Shown piece after piece: positions 52,723 to 64,000 of a stretch of DNA of 64,000 bases. The notes under the pieces were generated by a model. The model did no database searches, had not been told where the DNA came from, and saw nothing but the letters and a program-made list of their open reading frames with translations. The DNA comes from Fimbriiglobus ruber (lineage in GTDB: Bacteria; Planctomycetota; Planctomycetia; Gemmatales; Gemmataceae): assembly GCF_002197845.1 (NCBI RefSeq), contig NZ_NIDE01000001.1:62001-126000 (forward strand), read 5' to 3'. The translations under genes were made by a program, and so were the position numbers. Each line of letters opens with the position of its first letter. Positions within the stretch are counted from its first letter, which is position 1.

Positions 52723-53796
52723 GATGCGTCCCCAATATTCGTTTCCCGAACCCGTGGTCCAAGCGATCGCGGACGCGCGCTATCGGCACCCGGACCCGCG
52801 TGTCCAAGAGCGGATGGAGATTCTCTGGCTCAAGACCCGGAACGTGACGCACAGTCGGATCGCGGAGTTGGCCAACGTGTCGCGCTCCACGGTGCAGCGG
52901 ACCCTGCGGATCTATGCGGCGAAGGGTCTGGATGGGGTCCGATCGTTCGGCTGGAAGGGCCAACCCAGTGCGCTGACACCGCATCACGGGACGATCGAAG
53001 ACGCGTTTCGCCGGCACCCGCCGCACACGGCCCACGAGGCGGCGCGGCGGATCGAGGACCTGACGGGCGTCCGACGCAAGGCGTCGCGGGTGCGCCAGTT
53101 CTTGAAAGAGGATCTGGGGATGAAATGCCTGAAGGTGGCACCCATCCCGGTGCCGCCCAAGAAAACGGTCGACGAACACGCCCGCACGCAGGCGGATTTT
53201 TTAAAAGACGGAACTGGAACCGAAGTTGGCGGAAGCCCGCGACGGTAAGCGGACGGTGTACTTCGTGGACGCGTCGCACTTCGTCTTGGCGTCGTTCCTG
53301 GGGTGGGTGTGGTGCTTCGTCCGGTTACATGTCCGGGCCGCGTCGGGACGGCAGAGGTACAACGTGCTGGGTGCGCTGAACGCGGTCACGCACGAGCTGG
53401 TGACAGAAATCAACACGACGTACATCACGGCCACCTCGGTGTGTGCGTTGCTCCGCAAGATCGCGGCCCTCGGTGGGTCATTGCCGATCACGCTGGTACT
53501 CGACAACGCCCGCTACCAGCGGTGCGCGCTGGTGGAGCACACGGCCAAGGCACTCGGGATCGAGTTGTTGTTCCTGCCGTCGTATTCGCCGAACCTGAAC
53601 TTGATCGAGCGACTCTGGAAGTTCGTGAAGAAGGAGGCGTTGAACAGCCGCCACCATCAGGACTTCAAGAAGTTCCAGGAGGCCATCGACCATTGCTTGG
53701 CGGATCTGCCGACGAAACACCGAGAGAAACTGGCGACCCTGATGACCCACAAATTCCAGACGTGGGACAATGTGTCACTCCTGGACGCGTAAAGTA
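52623..53796 (+). mobile_element. IS630/Tc1-mariner-type insertion sequence
   Basis: About 1.17 kb centred on the frameshifted transposase. AGTGACACA (52642-52650) and its inverse complement (53771-53779) lie at matching distances inside the ends, as part of an imperfect terminal inverted repeat. TA dinucleotides at 52623-52624 and 53795-53796 fit the TA target duplication of this family. Exact ends are inferred. Protein content and length are those of the family. Confidence 0.65.
52724..53792 (+). pseudogene. IS630-family transposase split by a one-base shift
   Basis: The first part (52724-53206) encodes the helix-turn-helix region (THSRIAELANVSRSTVQRTLR) up to RTQADFLK. The second part encodes the DDE catalytic domain with D in VYFVDASHF, D in LVLDNARYQ and E in NLNLIERLWK, all present. 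The reading frame moves by +1 at TTTTTTAAAAG (53197-53207). With one A fewer the protein would run on as ADFLKTELEPKLAEARDG, about 355 residues. So it is inactive by mutation, expressed by slippage on the T6/A4 run, or affected by sequence error. A Shine-Dalgarno (GGAGGG) precedes ATG 52724. Confidence 0.88.
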
Positions 53797-55510: not shown

Positions 55511-55544
55511 CTCCCACCTCGCATCGAACGCGGAAGGATGACCC

Positions 55545-56815
55545 ATGAGGCTCAGCAACGTCGCTCTCGCGCTCTTCCTCGGCTGCGGACCAGTCGCCGC
55601 GCAGGACGCCGGAACCCCCCGCCGCCCGCGGACCAGCCTGCCGCGAAGGACGAGCCGACGGACGCCGAGAAGGCGTTCGAGGACGCCGTCCGGGCCGCCG
55701 AGAAAGCGATCCGTGGCGCGAAGGCTTACACGCTCAAGGCAGAAGCGGCGTGGAAGCATTCCGGCCCCGGGGGCGACCGGTCGGGGACCAACGTTGCCGA
55801 GGTGACGGCCGCCGGGGCGGACAAGCTCCGCCTGGAAATCTTCGCGCCGGGTGTGGCCGGCCGGTACGTCGCCGCGGCGGACGGCAAGACGCTCACCCGG
55901 TTGTACACGGCGGCGAACCTGTACTCCGTCACCCCGACCGACCAACCGCTGCACGAACTCCAGACCGACGGGCTGACGGTGGCCGGGCTGCGCGAGGTGG
56001 GCGTGGACTTCATACTTCACCCGGACATGCACGGGGCGGTGATGGCTCAGACCGTCCGGGTCGAGGATCTGGGCGAAACCGGCGACAAGGAACGAAAGGT
56101 CCGGGCGTTCCGGGTGGGTCTGGTCAACGGGCGGACGGTAGAAGTCCGGTTCGCCGCCGGTCCGGAACCGCTCCCGATTTCCCTCCGCACGACCGCCGTC
56201 ATCCCGACGGACGAAAAGACCGTGTACAAGCTCATAGTCGAAACGAAATTGACCTGGGATCTGGCGGCCCGCCCGGTGGCCGACGTATTTACCGTCGCGA
56301 TCCCGGCCGGCGCGAAGAAGGTCGATGATTTGACTGACGAGCTACGTGGGCAAGTGACCGAGGACGCGATCGGCCAACCGGCCGGACCTGCCACCTTCAT
56401 TGGTCTGGACGACAAACCAGTCGACATCGCCGACTGGAAAGGAAAAAGTGTGTTGGTCGTGTATTCGTGGGCCACGTGGTCAGCTCCGAGCACCGACGAC
56501 ATGGCGGGGTTGAACCGGTTCGTGGCCGCGTACACCGGCAAGGGTGTGACGTTCCTGGCGGTGAACGCCGGCGAGTCGGCGGATGCGGCCAAGGCTTACG
56601 CCGAGAAAGCCGGGTACAAGGGGACCGTCGTACTCGACCCCAAAGGAGAGGGGTTAGCGTCCCTCAAGCTGCAGACCGTGCCGGGTGCCGTCATTTTGGA
56701 TAAGGACGGGACGGTCCGTGCGTACCACCGCGGCGGCAAGCCCCACACCAAGGACGCGGTGAAGAAAGACCTCGACACGCTACTCAAAGGCGAACAACCC
56801 GCGCCGAAAAAGTAG
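55545..56815 (+). pseudogene. Secreted LolA-like/thioredoxin-fold protein, frameshifted and lacking the redox CxxC
   Basis: The signal peptide (MRLSNVALALFLGCGPVAAQ, ATG 55545) is in one frame and the rest of the protein in the -1 frame; adding one C to the C6 run at 55615-55620 joins them. The body has an N-terminal domain of about 230 residues resembling outer-membrane lipoprotein carrier/DUF2092 folds. A TlpA/AhpC-like domain follows from about 290. Where TlpA has WCxxC, it reads SWATWSAPSTDDM, both Cys replaced by Ser, so it cannot act as a thiol oxidoreductase. Without the shift it would have no signal peptide. A sequence error is as likely as a true pseudogene. Confidence 0.82.
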
Positions 56816-56891: not shown

Positions 56892-58313
56892 TTAAGACTT
56901 GCGTTGGTTGGCGACCTTGATTTGAGGCAATCCGCGGCGGTCTTTTTGGAAGTAGCAGATCTCGACCAGTGTGGGCCACAGCTCGATCGAGCCTTTGATG
57001 ACGGTGACCACGTCGTCCACGATGCGGAGCAGGTTCTGCTGGAAGAAGTCGGGCTCGAAGGCGTAAAAGGCTTTCTGCAGGTTGGCCGCGAAGAGCTTGA
57101 GGGCGTCCGCCCGCTGCGGGGTGGCCGCCCGGTCGGCGGCGTCGATCGCGCGGGCGTACATCGTCGCGACCTTGTCCAGAATGCCCTTGGCGTCTTCGGC
57201 GGTCACGTGCCCGTCGTAGTCGAAGGCGATGCCGAGTTCGTCCACCCGGGAAACCGAGTCCTTGATCTTCCGCTTGAGGAGGTTGGCCACCTCCTCGTTG
57301 AAGATCTCGGCGGCCACCGGGTTCCGCATGTAGTTCGACTTGGTGTGATTTTGTGCGGCGTCGACGTGGGCCGCCGCGATGCCCGGTTGCTGAACCCAGA
57401 GGCGGTAGATGTAGTCCTCGAACCGGAGGCGGGTCGGGAAGAACGGGGGCAGGCCGGCCGTGTTGTCGTACCCGGCCACGCCGCAGTCCATTCGCCAGTT
57501 CTTGTTCGTGACCGCCGGCCGGAAGTTGACCAGGACGTACAACTCGTTCAACTCGTCCGGGTCGACCTGGTCTTCGTTCGCCAGGAACAGTTCGGCGAAG
57601 TCGAGCGCGTCCACGTCGTTCGTCCCGGACCGGAACGTTTGGGCCATCTTGACCACGGCCCCCGGTTCGACGGTTCCTCTTTCCAATAGAAGGGAGTTTT
57701 CCCGGCTCATCCCCTTGGTGGCGTTCGTTTCCAGGTCCATGGCCGTGTCGATCAGCAGGTCGCCCTTCTCGTAATTGTCCGGCACCTCGGCGGCGGTCTT
57801 TCCGAGGACGTCGAGGAACGCCCCGACGATATCAAACGACTTCCGCGTGTACCCGTTCTGGCCGGTCCGGTGCAACCGGCCGCGGCTGACCTCGCCGTCC
57901 GTGAGTGACTCGCGTCCGTGTTCGACCAGGGCGTACGGCCGCATGTCGTCGTCGGAACTGACCACCAACCCGCCGAGGGTGTACATCAGGGTGAAGTTGC
58001 GGTTCCCGCCGTAGCTGGGGCGGAACAGGTTCTTGACCAATCCGTCCAACCGCTTGTCCCGCAGTCGGTGGCTGATGTAGGCCGTGAACTGTTCTTTCTC
58101 TTTTGGGCCGACGTAGTACAGGTCGGCGTGCGTCCGGGTCTGTTCCAGGATTGGGTAATACTTTTCCTGGGCGACGGGACTGGAGTCGTCGAAAACGACG
58201 ATCTTTGGGGCGTGGCCGTTTCGCCAGAAGTGTTCGTCGTACTGCTCGACGGTTTCCCCGACGTCGCGGAGCCGGTAGGTGGGGATGACGAACGAGAGGT
58301 CGCTGGCGTGCAT
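56892..58313 (-). CDS. GT-A-fold glycosyltransferase-like protein
   Basis: 473 residues. The N-terminus DLSFVIPTYRLRDVGETVEQYDEHFW with KIVVFDDSSP is the nucleotide-binding start of family-2-type glycosyltransferases. VVSSDDDMRPYALVEHG provides the metal-binding DxD. The middle part (FPTRLRFEDYIYRLWVQQPG) contains an ED motif usual for the catalytic base region. The C-terminal 150 residues are helical. There is no membrane segment. Acceptor and donor are unknown. Confidence 0.78.
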   Translation of the reverse strand: MHASDLSFVIPTYRLRDVGETVEQYDEHFWRNGHAPKIVVFDDSSPVAQEKYYPILEQTRTHADLYYVGPKEKEQFTAYISHRLRDKRLDGLVKNLFRPSYGGNRNFTLMYTLGGLVVSSDDDMRPYALVEHGRESLTDGEVSRGRLHRTGQNGYTRKSFDIVGAFLDVLGKTAAEVPDNYEKGDLLIDTAMDLETNATKGMSRENSLLLERGTVEPGAVVKMAQTFRSGTNDVDALDFAELFLANEDQVDPDELNELYVLVNFRPAVTNKNWRMDCGVAGYDNTAGLPPFFPTRLRFEDYIYRLWVQQPGIAAAHVDAAQNHTKSNYMRNPVAAEIFNEEVANLLKRKIKDSVSRVDELGIAFDYDGHVTAEDAKGILDKVATMYARAIDAADRAATPQRADALKLFAANLQKAFYAFEPDFFQQNLLRIVDDVVTVIKGSIELWPTLVEICYFQKDRRGLPQIKVANQRKS

Positions 58314-58761: not shown

Positions 58762-58882
58762 CGACCTCACCCCTAACCCCCTCTCCGACGCGGAGAGGGG
58801 GAACCGAACCGCCACCCCCGATCAGCGGGCCGTCCGCTCGGGCTCCCCTCTCCGCGTCGGAGAGGGGCTGGGGGTGAGGTCG
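58762..58882. repeat. Imperfect inverted repeat with about 39-bp arms
   Basis: The arms (about 58762-58801 and 58842-58882) pair along CGACCTCACCCC...CCCCTCTCCGACGCGGAG with a few mismatches, and each arm contains its own short palindrome around CTCCGACGCGGAG. It lies 48 bases beyond the kdpC stop and could act as terminator or be a dispersed MITE-like element. The rest of 58585-58930 holds no gene. Confidence 0.8.
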
Positions 58883-58930: not shown

Positions 58931-60022
58931 TTACTTCCCCGGTGCTGGCGTGGGCGCCGGCGGCGGGACCGGGAACTTGGCGTCTAGCGCCAGGTTCAAT
59001 TCGAGTACGTTCACCAGCGGCTCGCCGACCAACCCGCTGAGTGGCACGTATGAGTGCGACCGGACCAGGAAGGTGATGCCGTGTTTGATTTTCTCGGCCT
59101 CCCCGGGGGACGCGGTTCGCTTCGCCGCCACCCGGTCGAGCTGGTAAACGGAAAGCGCGTTGCGGACAGTGATGTCCGGGTCGAGCCCGGAGCCCGACGC
59201 CGTCACCATGTCGGCCGGGACCGGCTCCAGGTCGGCGGCCTTGGTCTTGTAGGCCGGGTCGCTCAGCCAGAGGTCGAAGAAGTTCGACTGAATCTGGGCG
59301 TCGCTCGTGACCGGCTCGATCTTCTTCGTCACCGTCCCGTCAGCCTTCTTGGTCTCGACGACACCGGGCCACTTGGCCGGGTGGGTCTTGGCGAAGCTGG
59401 CGAAGAACTGCACGACCAGGTCTTCCGGCTTCGGCTCGTCGGTCTTGTCCGCGTTGGCCTTCTTCCACTCCTCGATAACGTCTGGATGGTCCTTGGCCCA
59501 TTGCGTGATGTAATCGCCCTGGATGCCGTACTTGTCGTTGGCAAAGTCGATCTTGGCCCAGGCCGGCGGGGCCACGCTCGAATCGGACGCCCAGTCGGCG
59601 ACGCGGTCCGGCTTCGCCGCGAACCACGCTTCGATGTCCTGCTGGGGCGTCCGGCCGCCGGCCGCCGACGGGCTGCCGGATTTGTAAACGACCATCGTCC
59701 CGAGTTGCTGGGCGACGCGGTCGCGGAGTTTGGGGTTGTTCGCCCCCAGGTTGCTCCCGCCCGATGCCGTCGCGTTGTACGACGCGGCCGACGGCCGAGG
59801 CCAGAAATACTCGTCCGACGAAAACGGCTGGGCGATCAGCCGGGCGCCGCGGGCGGCGGCCGGATCACGGGTGTCGTTTCCTTTCTCGTCGATCAATCCT
59901 CCGGCCGCCGTCGTCGGGGCCAGCACGCGCGCCGAACCGTACAGGACCAGCGGGTACAAACCACAACAGATGGCGACAGAAAACACGAGCAAGAACAAGT
60001 TTCCGCGTATATGACCGAGCAT
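58931..60022 (-). CDS. kdpC: K+-transporting ATPase subunit C with large insertion
   Basis: 363 residues, almost twice the family norm of about 190. Residues 1-110 (membrane helix NLFLLVFSVAICCGLYPLVLYG, then FWPRPSAASYNATASGGSNLG) and 267-347 (DMVTASGSGLDPDITVRNAL, VGEPLVNVLELNLALD) are standard KdpC. Between them lie about 155 extra residues, hydrophilic and helical (TPQQDIEAWFAAKPDRVADW, DYITQWAKDHPDVIEEWKK), on the periplasmic side. A Pro-rich tail ends the protein. KdpC stabilises the KdpFABC complex. It follows kdpB by 57 bases. Confidence 0.95.
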   Translation of the reverse strand: MLGHIRGNLFLLVFSVAICCGLYPLVLYGSARVLAPTTAAGGLIDEKGNDTRDPAAARGARLIAQPFSSDEYFWPRPSAASYNATASGGSNLGANNPKLRDRVAQQLGTMVVYKSGSPSAAGGRTPQQDIEAWFAAKPDRVADWASDSSVAPPAWAKIDFANDKYGIQGDYITQWAKDHPDVIEEWKKANADKTDEPKPEDLVVQFFASFAKTHPAKWPGVVETKKADGTVTKKIEPVTSDAQIQSNFFDLWLSDPAYKTKAADLEPVPADMVTASGSGLDPDITVRNALSVYQLDRVAAKRTASPGEAEKIKHGITFLVRSHSYVPLSGLVGEPLVNVLELNLALDAKFPVPPPAPTPAPGK

Positions 60023-60079: not shown

Positions 60080-62251
60080 TTACGCCAATCCGAGGACGAC
60101 TAGCCCCATGTCGATCAGCTTGATCCCGACGAACGGGGCGATCACGCCGCCGAGCCCCCAGACGAGCAGGTTCCGCCGCAGGAGCGCGTCGGCCCCGACC
60201 GGCCGGTAGGTCACGCCCTTGAGGGCGATCGGGATCAGTGCCGGGATGATGATCGCGTTGAAGATCACCGCCGACAGGATGGCCGACGTCGGGGACGCCA
60301 GGTGCATGAAGTCGAGGGCCTTCAGCCACGGTAGGGTGCCGGCGAACAGCGCGGGGACGATGGCGAAATACTTCGCCAGGTCGTTCGCGATGCTGAACGT
60401 CGTCAGGGCCCCACGGGTCATGAGTAGCTGCTTGCCGATCTCGACGACTTCAATCAACTTGGTCGGGTCGCTGTCGAGGTCGACCATATTCCCGGCTTCC
60501 TTGGCGGCCTGGGTGCCCGAGTTCATGGCCACCCCGAGGTCGGCCTGGGCGAGGGCCGGGGCGTCGTTCGTGCCGTCGCCCATCATGGCCACCAGCCTAC
60601 CGCCGAACTGCTCCTTGCGGATGTACGCCAGCTTGGCTTCCGGGGTCGCCTCGGCGATGTAATCGTCCACCCCGGCCTGGCCCGCGATGCTCTTCGCGGT
60701 CAGCGGGTTGTCGCCCGTCACCATGACAGTCCGGATGCCCATCTTGCGGAGCCGCTCGAACCGCTCCTTGATGCCGGGCTTGAGGATGTCTTCCAGGACC
60801 ACCAGGCCGAGTACCCGGTTTCCTTCGGCGATCAGTAGGGGAGTCGCCCCCTGGCTGGCGACCGCGTCCACCTGTTCCTGCAACCGGGCGGGCAGCGTCC
60901 CGCCCTGGGCACGGACGTGCTTCACGATCGCGTCGGCCGCCCCCTTACGGACCTGCCGGCCGTCCGGGAGGTCGACCCCGCTCATCCGCGTCTGGGCGGT
61001 GAACGGGACGAAATTCGCCCCGGCCGGGGCAGCGGCCGCCGCCGGGTTCCCGCCGGGCAGCTTGCGGTAGAGGTCGACGATACTCTTGCCTTCGGGCGTC
61101 TCGTCCGCCGCGCTCGACAAGGCGGCCAACAGACCCACTTCGGTCGCCGCCAGGTCGCCGAGCGGCAGGATCTGGGTCGCCCGCCGGTTCCCCATCGTGA
61201 TCGTGCCGGTCTTGTCCAACAGGAGTGTGTCGACGTCGCCGGCCACTTCGACGGCCTTGCCGCTCTTGGCGATCAGGTTGGCCCGGAGGGCGCGGTCCAT
61301 GCCGGCGATCCCGATCGCCGCGAGCAGCGCGCCGATGGTCGTCGGGATCAGGCAGACGAGCAGGGCGACGAGCGTGGGCACGTCGGTCCCCAGGCTCCGA
61401 ATGTTTTCCGGTGCTCCGAGGTAATCCTTCATGTACGATTCGGCGTTCGCGGCCATCGGCCAGAGAGCCGCGGTGACGATCAGGAAGATCAGCGTGAACG
61501 CACTCAGTACGAGCGACAGGGCGATCTCGTTGGGCGTCCGCTGACGGGCCGCCCCTTCGACCAGCGCGATCATCCGGTCGAGGAACGACTTGCCGGCCGC
61601 CGCCGTCACCCGGACGACGATGCGGTCGGACAATACCCGCGTCCCGCCGGTGACGCCGGACCGGTCTCCGCCGGCCTCGCGAACCACCGGCGCACTTTCT
61701 CCGGTGATCGCCGCCTCGTCGACCGAGGCGACACCGGCGACGATCTCTCCGTCGGCCGGAATGAGTAGTCCGGCGTCCACGACGACAAGGTCTCCTTCCT
61801 TGAGCGCGGTCGAAACGCTCCTTTCGAAGCTCGAAATCGGCGCGTCCAACGCTTGCCGGGGGTCGTCGTGGGCGCGCGCCAACCGGTAGGCCGGAGTTTC
61901 CTGACGGGTCTTACGGAGGGCGTCGGCCTGGGCCTTCCCCCGGGCCTCGGCCAGCGCCTCGGCGAAGTTGGCGAAGAGGACCGTCAGGAACAGCCAGACG
62001 TCGAGCGCGATCAGGTAGCCGAGTGTCGCGTGGGTCGAGGCGGGAACGAAGACCTTGTACACCGTGTACACGACCGACAGCACCGTCCCCACTTCGACCG
62101 TGAACATGACCGGGTTCTTCCACATCAGGTCCGGCCGCAGCATGACGAACGCCCGGGCCAACGCGGCCTGCAGGAGGTCGGGTGCGAACAGCCCTTGCTT
62201 GCGACTGAGTCGGCGGGCGGCCTTCAAGTCAGGTAAGGTAACGGCGGACAT
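60080..62251 (-). CDS. kdpB: K+-transporting P-type ATPase subunit B
   Basis: About 723 residues from ATG 62251; an upstream in-frame extension has no KdpB similarity. Motifs: TGES in [13 protein letters not shown] (actuator), [14 protein letters not shown] (phosphorylated Asp), [20 protein letters not shown] and [22 protein letters not shown] (hinge). The membrane segments [15 protein letters not shown] and PLLGDGT-type hinge region fit KdpB. It energises high-affinity potassium uptake through KdpA. KdpF and KdpDE are not visible. Confidence 0.97.
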
Positions 62252-62381
62252 CGGAGACCTCGGAAGAAAGCACACGCAAAGTCGCAGTGACACAGATTTC
62301 AGGAAGGCGGATCTCACGCGGGGACAGGGCAGCCGGGGCAATCACGCCAGCCGCCCTGTCCGCCGCGTAAGACTCACCGGG

Positions 62382-64000
62382 TTACCGACCGAACGGCATC
62401 GGCCCCAGGTGTTCGGCGACCGGCCCGAGGGCCAGGGCCGGGAGGAACAACAACGCGCCGACGAGGAGGACCGTCCCGAGCAGCACGAAGCCGAACGTCA
62501 CCGTGTCCGTCCGCAGCGTGCCCGCCGTGAACGGGACCCGCTTTTTGGTCGCCAGGCTCCCGGCCAGGGCGAGCGGGGCGATGATCGGGACGAACCGCCC
62601 GAGCAACATCACCAGCCCGGTCGCGATATCCCAGTGCGGGGAGTACGGGGCCGGCGTCGACAGGTTCTTTGCTCCATCGTTGAACCCGTAAGTGTCGCCC
62701 AGACCCTCGAACCCGGACCCGTTGTTCGCGGACGACGAGGTGAACTCGTACAGGATTTCACTGAAGCCGTGCGCCCCGGGGTTGCTCTCCGCCGCCTTGC
62801 CCCAATCCAGGGCCGCGAAGAGCCCGGTCGGCCCGAGGACGAGGAGCGGGTGGACCAGGAGGGCAAGCATGGCCAGTTTCATCTCCTTGGCCTCGATCTT
62901 CTTGCCCAGGTACTCCGGGGTCCGCCCGACCATCAGGCCGGACAGGAACACCCCGACGACCAGGTAGATCAGCATGTTGATCAGCCCGACGCCCTTCCCG
63001 CCGAAGACGCAGTTCAGCATCATGCCGACCATCGGAGTGATGCCGGCCAGGGGGTTCAGGCTGTCGTGCATGCAGTTCACTGAACCGCACGTGACCGCCG
63101 TGGTGACGGCCGAGAAGGTCGCGCCGGCCGACGGACCGAAGCGGAGTTCCTTCCCTTCCAGGTTTCCGACGCCGGATTGGTCAACGGGCAACCCGACGAG
63201 CGGTGGAACCACTTTCTCAGGCGCCCCGGGTACGACGATCTTTCGCTCCGGTTGGGCGGTGAAAGCGGGGTTCGGCGTCAGGCTGTCGTGGTAGACCGCC
63301 CACCCGATCATTGCCACGAACATCAGCATCATGACCGAGTAAATCACGGCCGCGTGCCGCTCCTGACGGAGCATCCGCCCGAACATCACTACCAGGGAGA
63401 ACGGGAAAACCAGGATGCTGACGCACTCGATGAAGTTGGTCCACGCCGACGGGTTTTCGTACGGGTGGGCGGAGTTGGCCCCGAAGAAACCGCCGCCGTT
63501 CGTCCCGAAGTGCTTGATCGGGAGGATCGCCGCCACCGGCCCGCGGGCCACGACCTGCGGCTTGGGCACGTCTTTCCCGTCGACCGAGTCAGTACCCATC
63601 GCGCCGGCCTGAACCGTCTTCACCTCGGCGGACGGTTCGAGTGTCATCGGCATCCCGCACAGGATCAGGAGGACGCCGGCGACGACGCTCGCGGGGATGA
63701 ACACGTAAACGATGACCCGCCACATGTCGAGGTAGTAGTTACCCATGTGCGTGTCGCCGCGGAGCCCGCGGATGACTGCCGCCAGGGCGCAGAACCCGAC
63801 CGCCGCGGACGTGAACATGTTGAACACCACGAACAGCAACTGGCTGAAGTACGACAGGTGCTGCTCGCCCGAGTAGTGCTGCAGGTTGGTGTTCGTCATG
63901 AACGACACGGCCGTGTTAAAAATCGTCGTCGGGGACAGCATCAGTTTGCCGTCCGGGAACGCCGAGTCGTGCTGGTTCAGCGGTGCGAACGGTTGAACCA
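62382..64000 (-). CDS. kdpA: K+-transporting ATPase subunit A (N-terminus outside window)
   Basis: The frame is open to the right edge, entering as VQPFAPLNQHDSAFPDGKL before MLSPTTIFNTAVSFMTNTN, so about 539 residues are visible and only a short N-terminal part is missing. Selectivity-filter-like loops are present: FMTNTNLQHYSGE (loop 1), FGTNGGGFFGANSAHPYENP (loop 2), CGSVNCMHDSLNP (loop 3) and TSSSANNGSGFEGLG (loop 4). KdpA is the channel-like subunit of the potassium pump. The order kdpA-kdpB-kdpC is the standard one. Confidence 0.97.
   Translation of the reverse strand, partial: VQPFAPLNQHDSAFPDGKLMLSPTTIFNTAVSFMTNTNLQHYSGEQHLSYFSQLLFVVFNMFTSAAVGFCALAAVIRGLRGDTHMGNYYLDMWRVIVYVFIPASVVAGVLLILCGMPMTLEPSAEVKTVQAGAMGTDSVDGKDVPKPQVVARGPVAAILPIKHFGTNGGGFFGANSAHPYENPSAWTNFIECVSILVFPFSLVVMFGRMLRQERHAAVIYSVMMLMFVAMIGWAVYHDSLTPNPAFTAQPERKIVVPGAPEKVVPPLVGLPVDQSGVGNLEGKELRFGPSAGATFSAVTTAVTCGSVNCMHDSLNPLAGITPMVGMMLNCVFGGKGVGLINMLIYLVVGVFLSGLMVGRTPEYLGKKIEAKEMKLAMLALLVHPLLVLGPTGLFAALDWGKAAESNPGAHGFSEILYEFTSSSANNGSGFEGLGDTYGFNDGAKNLSTPAPYSPHWDIATGLVMLLGRFVPIIAPLALAGSLATKKRVPFTAGTLRTDTVTFGFVLLGTVLLVGALLFLPALALGPVAEHLGPMPFGR

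What the first reader, a model, noticed from the sequence alone, without database searches (positions are those of the whole stretch)
58931..60022. KdpC with an extra domain of about 155 residues
The standard KdpC halves flank a hydrophilic helical insertion (about residues 111-266) on the outer side of the membrane. KdpC touches KdpA near the ion entry, so an added domain could influence potassium access, complex stability or interaction with the unusual planctomycete envelope.
Basis: partly seen in the sequence, partly recalled or inferred. Interest (0 to 1): 0.5.

Follow-up and report, generated by a model that had tools for sequence, protein, structure and literature searches.

The report
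Potassium pump subunit with extra domain
One subunit of a planctomycete potassium pump carries an extra, conserved, apparently folded outer domain that is missing from the standard form; it is a real add-on to a well-known machine, and its presence in some relatives and absence in others offers a way to ask what this poorly understood subunit does.

Summary
KdpC (58931-60022, minus strand, 363 aa) is interrupted by a 156-residue insert (residues 109-264, nt 59231-59698) on the outer side of the membrane. It is no artefact: homologous inserts lie in KdpC of 26 of 95 family genomes and of ten more class genomes. They evolve under constraint similar to the KdpC core, contain degenerate W..P..W repeats, and the insert alone is modelled fairly well (pLDDT 76.8, pTM 0.70), without a PDB match. 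The insert belongs to one of two Kdp lineages. The simplest history is one gain, three losses and one partial loss; the same-genus genome G001 lacks it. An enlarged outer KdpA loop goes with it in 27 of 29 loci and is absent from 7 of 7 others, but that is only one or two independent contrasts. I read the insert as an extension of the KdpC cap packed against KdpA, tuning stability or K+ access; this mechanism is inferred. A link to the planctomycete envelope is untested. New variant of a known kind; no known domain family matched.

The parts
58931..60022 (-). kdpC, 363 aa, long form
59231..59698 (-). insert domain, KdpC residues 109-264 (156 aa), W..P..W repeats and a predicted beta hairpin
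59690..60001 (-). N-terminal half of KdpC (residues 8-111), membrane helix and first part of the outer domain
   Evidence: Pfam PF02669 stretch
58979..59224 (-). C-terminal half of KdpC (residues 267-348)
   Evidence: NCBIfam TIGR00681 stretch; E. coli alignment
60080..62341 (-). kdpB, P-type ATPase subunit (longest open frame; the true start is probably inside it)
61400..61426 (-). KdpB outer-loop extension, 9 residues here
62382..64000 (-). kdpA, channel-like subunit; runs past the window end (open frame L079 7401-9239, that is to about 64220)
63198..63260 (-). KdpA outer loop before filter strand 3, 21 extra residues, found where the KdpC insert is found in 27 of 29 loci
   Evidence: filter strand named from recall by the CGSVN motif
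62634..62681 (-). KdpA outer loop after filter strand 4, 16 extra residues, general to this Kdp lineage with or without the KdpC insert
   Evidence: filter strand named from recall

Best explanation
Shown: a planctomycete Kdp lineage carries a long KdpC in which a conserved domain (roughly 80-170 residues beyond the 30-35 of short forms) is inserted in the loop between the two halves of the outer domain; its simplest history is one gain, three losses and one partial loss. Predicted: it is a compact, mostly helical domain with a beta hairpin, built partly from degenerate W..P..W units. Inferred mechanism: the domain extends the KdpC cap over the KdpA vestibule and packs on the enlarged KdpA loop that precedes filter strand 3 (perhaps also on the longer KdpB outer loop), stiffening the outer face of the pump and tuning K+ access, affinity or complex stability. 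It is an accessory, since sister operons exist without it.
For: Two-piece KdpC match in one open frame; homologous insert in 26 of 95 family genomes, each time at the KdpC locus, and in ten further class genomes; identity of the insert to the four nearest relatives 66-74%, flanks 54-76%; insert dN/dS 0.12-0.23 in 9 of 10 hand-picked pairs (one saturated), core 0.09-0.25 in 10 of 10; internal repeat reached by 0 of 500 shuffles at 16 columns and 1 of 500 at 20; insert-only model pLDDT 76.8, pTM 0.70; KdpA loop enlarged in 27 of 29 insert loci and 0 of 7 others; KdpB outer loop 7-9 extra residues in 23 of 24 long rows, against 1 in four insert-less rows and 0 in G044; KdpC lies close to the selectivity filter in E. 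coli and was suggested to raise K+ affinity (PMC6255902, passages).
Against: Only one or two independent contrasts link KdpA loop and insert; no significance. G019 and G083 have the insert without the loop. G029 keeps the loop (27 residues) and the KdpB loop with only a 32-residue remnant of the insert, and is one of the 27. The KdpB loop stays at 7-8 in G039, G081 and G082, which lack the insert. Against six more distant relatives the insert is less alike (34-45%) than the flanks (46-58%), and its dN/dS exceeds the core's in 5 of 9 pairs. Length varies and it was lost repeatedly. The full-length model was poor (pLDDT 51.7), so the placing of the insert relative to KdpA is unknown. KdpC does not move between the E. 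coli states compared, which speaks against a moving gate (PMC6255902, passage).
Confidence: 0.42

Rival explanations
1. The insert is a docking module for something outside the pump: peptidoglycan, an outer-membrane or coat protein, or another membrane complex. The pump itself would run as usual.
For: Folded-looking, with conserved aromatic and proline positions. Added outer parts recur: genome G057 has a KdpC with a different insert and a C-terminal extension of about 250 residues. Intact copies were seen only in planctomycetes, whose envelopes are unusual (established knowledge), although only that phylum and plasmids were searched in depth.
Against: No partner found; no known domain matched in Pfam, NCBIfam or PDB. 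The KdpA loop association points inward. A decayed copy on Caballeronia plasmids shows that it has reached a proteobacterium.
Confidence: 0.25
2. The insert is a tolerated ornament: a folded spacer in a permissive loop, without a transport or docking role.
For: The same loop holds inserts that look unrelated in G209 and G057. Three losses and one partial loss. The loop region spans 113 to 201 residues in the 22 of 26 long family rows that both anchors could measure.
Against: Constraint similar to the KdpC core. The motif QQDIEAWFA..PDR.A.W is invariant in the window and its five aligned relatives, though in a wider eight-row set only D, E, W, F, A and W of it are.
Confidence: 0.22
3. A local artefact (frameshift, mis-assembly, chimera) in this one genome.
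For: Absent from the same-genus genome G001.
Against: Homologous inserts in 35 other genomes, a few of them cut by contig ends or fragmentary, with excess synonymous change.
Confidence: 0.01

Closest known systems
KdpC of E. coli KdpFABC (PF02669; PDB 6hra_C, 7bgy_C, 5mrw_C)
   Same: Conserved halves, alignment over residues 5-110 and 267-347
   Different: E. coli has nine residues between the halves, the window protein 156. The stricter NCBIfam name cut-offs are missed by the window protein, whose match is split (TIGR00681 120.6 of 152.55 bits; NF001454 154.2 of 178)
Long KdpC of other planctomycetes (25 further family genomes, ten further class genomes)
   Same: Homologous insert in the same loop
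   Different: Length varies; G088 and G090 are shortened and G029 keeps a remnant; G013, G017, G020 and G080 lack repeat segments
Standard (type I) KdpC in the same family: 13 of 46 KdpC-bearing genomes (12 by the KdpA+KdpB tree, G032 by KdpC score alone)
   Same: Same subunit, same operon
   Different: No insert; KdpA 40-45% identical to the window's, against 57-84% in the window's lineage within the family; a KdpD match near kdpC on the same contig in 11 of 13, in an open frame over 900 aa in 6
Beta subunits of Na+/K+- and H+/K+-ATPase (analogy only)
   Same: Outward-facing accessory subunit of a P-type pump; likeness proposed in PMC6255902 and PMC8385062 (passages)
   Different: No test of homology made here

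Membership tests
KdpC (PF02669) | Profile match over the curated cut-off | tested here: met
   161.8 bits against 24.1, in two stretches. The NCBIfam name cut-offs, which are thresholds of those models, are not reached: the insert splits the match.
KdpC (PF02669) | Operon place directly after kdpB, with kdpA before it | tested here: met
   kdpB 60080-62341 and kdpA from 62382, same strand
KdpC (PF02669) | N-terminal membrane helix and core motifs (LIAQ, RPSA, GLDP, NVLELN; chosen from the alignment) | tested here: met
   alignment with standard KdpC rows; helix 2-34 in the full-length model
KdpC (PF02669) | Assembly into a working KdpFABC pump | not testable with these tools
   needs expression and purification
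Any known domain family for the insert | Significant profile, sequence or fold match | tested here: not met
   Of eight members, none matched a Pfam or NCBIfam family together with another; best single E 0.0069 and 0.06; PDB sequences best E 0.32; PDB folds best E 0.35, 0 of 987 chains at Z 2 or more
Long-KdpC insert family defined here | Match to the profile of eight inserts | tested here: met
   E 1.6e-59 for the window, which is itself one of the eight

The most novel reading that the evidence does not exclude
The insert, the enlarged KdpA loop before filter strand 3 and the longer KdpB loop form one extra outer lid over the K+ entrance: a lineage-specific layer of control of a P-type pump, gained as a set and partly dismantled as a set.
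Probability: 0.15. Interest if true: 0.65.

Novelty: new variant of a known kind. Interest (0 to 1): 0.42.

Why it matters
The role of KdpC is described as still unknown (PMC9651954, passage) or as that of a structural chaperone (PMC12629597, passage). A natural series of KdpC with full, partial and no insert in close relatives (for example G019/G083 against G081/G082), most of the carriers with a matching KdpA loop, makes a testable system for what the outer cap of this pump does. Seven full-text searches for KdpC or Kdp with planctomycetes, insertion, insertion domain, additional domain, Gemmata, cryo-EM or chaperone listed nothing that describes such an insert, judged by titles, abstract starts and the passages seen; most subscription papers are not in that library.

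Tried and rejected
Full-length AlphaFold with six sequences gave pLDDT 51.7 and was not used for topology. A first repeat test was faulty: of 21 rows eight came out empty and G087 was cut short; it was replaced. That the insert is confined to one family, suggested by 1 of 392 phylum genomes (ten candidates scored per genome), was withdrawn after the class search found ten carriers in other families. KdpB-KdpC fusions, suspected from long open frames, were by eye only open upstream sequence in the nine loci read. An RNA switch in or before the operon: no Rfam match at the curators' threshold in 7,501 bases. KdpD as partner of the insert: in the window's lineage 27 of 30 KdpD open frames are 379-553 aa, with and without the insert; the others are G013 952, G113 862 and G011 219. 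Rows left out: G017 and G032 have no KdpA or KdpB on their pieces and are in no tree; G076 (chimeric frame, long branch) and G090 (29% filled) were dropped, so the trees lack them; G609 and the Caballeronia loci were not put into; of its 43 rows, six without their KdpA and G081 with a partial one are not in the loop table (36 rows). G585's only KdpA hit belongs to another Kdp type and was not used.

Full report
What is there. The gene at 58931-60022 lies on the minus strand, encodes 363 residues and follows kdpB and kdpA on the same strand. Pfam KdpC matches in two stretches. Against E. coli KdpC the halves are residues 5-110 and 267-347, which in E. coli are separated by nine residues. The insert is residues 109-264, 156 aa, net charge -5, seven tryptophans, no cysteine.

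Distribution. In the family, 46 of 95 genomes have a KdpC. A profile of eight inserts matches 26 of 95 at E 0.001; each match lies at the KdpC locus, and none lies elsewhere among the candidates scored, up to 42 per genome. Of the other 20, 13 have the standard Kdp type (12 by the tree, G032 by KdpC score alone) and seven (G001, G010, G011, G029, G072, G081, G082) belong to the window's Kdp lineage without the full insert. The profile matches 1 of 392 genomes drawn across the phylum, the window's own, although 40 of 392 have KdpC. In the class it matches 36 of 397: the 26 above and ten from other families. Reading these ten shows the insert inside KdpC, G587 with two copies and G609 with only a 90-residue fragment. 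In some searches at most ten candidates per genome were scored, so misses are possible. A first scan of one genome per species with short patterns of the window protein found five loci, all planctomycete; it finds close relatives only. Among 72,556 plasmid records two match, both Caballeronia, of 444 with a KdpC match. That operon is decayed: KdpC has internal stops, only the last 220 residues of KdpB align, and KdpA is not found in the stretch. Phyla other than this one were not searched with the profile.

History. The tree of KdpA plus KdpB separates a standard lineage (16 rows, none with the insert) from the window's lineage (35 rows: 25 long, 2 middle, 8 short). Within the latter the long state needs five changes, of which well-supported branches force five or four (with more rows). 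Because the inserts are homologous, one gain followed by losses is the simplest reading: full loss in G039, in the group G001/G010/G011/G072 and in G081/G082, whose nearest relatives G019/G083 keep the insert, and partial loss in G029, which keeps 32 residues. Transfer of operons is likely too, since the window's genus-mate G001 sits in another part of the tree.

Is it functional? dN/dS of the insert is 0.12-0.23 in nine of ten pairs that I picked (one was saturated), against 0.09-0.25 for the core; it is above the core's in five of nine, below in three, equal in one. Identity to the window is 66-74% (flanks 54-76%) for the four nearest relatives, but 34-45% (flanks 46-58%) for six more distant ones. 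So the insert is constrained, though it drifts faster over long spans. The window and five relatives share an invariant QQDIEAWFA..PDR.A.W; in a wider eight-row set fifteen positions of the insert are invariant. It contains degenerate repeats of the pattern I/F..W....P..v..W: the best self-match is reached by 0 of 500 shuffles at 16 columns and 1 of 500 at 20. Alone, with short flanks, it is modelled with mean pLDDT 76.8 and pTM 0.70 (the five models range from 62.7 to 76.8) as helices plus one beta hairpin, with short strands near both ends. I infer, without having seen coordinates, that these end strands pair and form a stem. Residues 1-11, 53-57 and 62-69 of the model are below 50. No fold match was found: best PDB E-value 0.35, 0 of 987 chains at Z 2 or more, none at E 0.001 among viral models. 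No sequence family matched.

Coupling to KdpA and KdpB. Directly before filter strand 3 (named from recall) the KdpA outer loop has 15-38 extra residues in 20 of 22 long-KdpC loci of the first set and 27 in G029; it has none in the six insert-less loci of the lineage with usable KdpA and in G057, none in 13 of 14 type I rows and 8 in G096. With the second set the table is 27 with both, two with the insert alone (G019, G083), seven with neither, none with the loop alone, of 36 loci (G029 counted as having the insert, G057, with its different one, as lacking it). Only one or two independent contrasts exist, so no significance can be claimed. A KdpB outer loop has 7-9 extra residues in 23 of 24 long rows (0 in G090, a partial KdpB) and in G029, G039, G081 and G082, but 1 in G001, G010, G011 and G072 and 0 in G044 and G057. 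A KdpA loop after filter strand 4 is enlarged with or without the insert.

A permissive loop. Two other planctomycete KdpC have additions in the same loop that look unrelated: G209, a proline-alanine linker with a short domain, a genome of the phylum set without a match to the insert profile; and G057, a charged stretch of about 50 residues, judged by eye, plus a C-terminal extension without a Pfam match.

Reading. In E. coli KdpC sits outside, near the filter of KdpA, and does not move between the states compared; its role is undecided (PMC6255902, PMC9651954, PMC12629597; passages). The most economical mechanism is an enlarged cap that packs on the enlarged KdpA loop and tunes stability or K+ access. 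Docking to something else and ornament remain plausible rivals. A complex structure, or removal of the insert, would decide.

Noticed in passing
58778-58800 and 58845-58867: Facing inverted copies of CCCCTCTCCGCGTCGGAGAGGGG just downstream of kdpC; the genome holds 29 copies with up to 2 mismatches, often in facing pairs 50-85 bases apart, against 0 of the reversed control. Looks like a dispersed palindromic element.
   Followed up: partly
52724-53792: Transposase in two overlapping + frames: helix-turn-helix part (52724-53248) and DDE_3 part (53226-53792); such a layout can mean a programmed frameshift (recalled) or decay.
   Followed up: partly
55538-56815: A DUF2092 periplasmic domain joined to a redoxin/AhpC-TSA domain in one protein.
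   Followed up: no
56892-58313, minus strand: 473-residue protein downstream of the kdp operon with no Pfam match at E 0.001.
   Followed up: no
L083 7983-9485 (genome G057): KdpC with a different short insert and a C-terminal extension of about 250 residues, coiled-coil-like by eye, no Pfam match beyond KdpC.
   Followed up: partly
L121 from about 8001, and L122 (genome G209): Two KdpC copies with a proline-alanine linker and short domain in the same loop as the window's insert, unlike it in sequence; the second holds masked bases.
   Followed up: partly
L126, L127 (Caballeronia plasmids): Decayed remnant of a long-KdpC operon; the KdpB end is about 83% identical to the window's over 220 residues, which points to transfer beyond planctomycetes.
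   Followed up: partly
L079 9514-10992 (beyond the window, divergent from kdp): Sigma-54 type response regulator next to the kdp operon; the genome's only KdpD match is about 1.09 Mb away, in a 492-residue open frame.
   Followed up: partly
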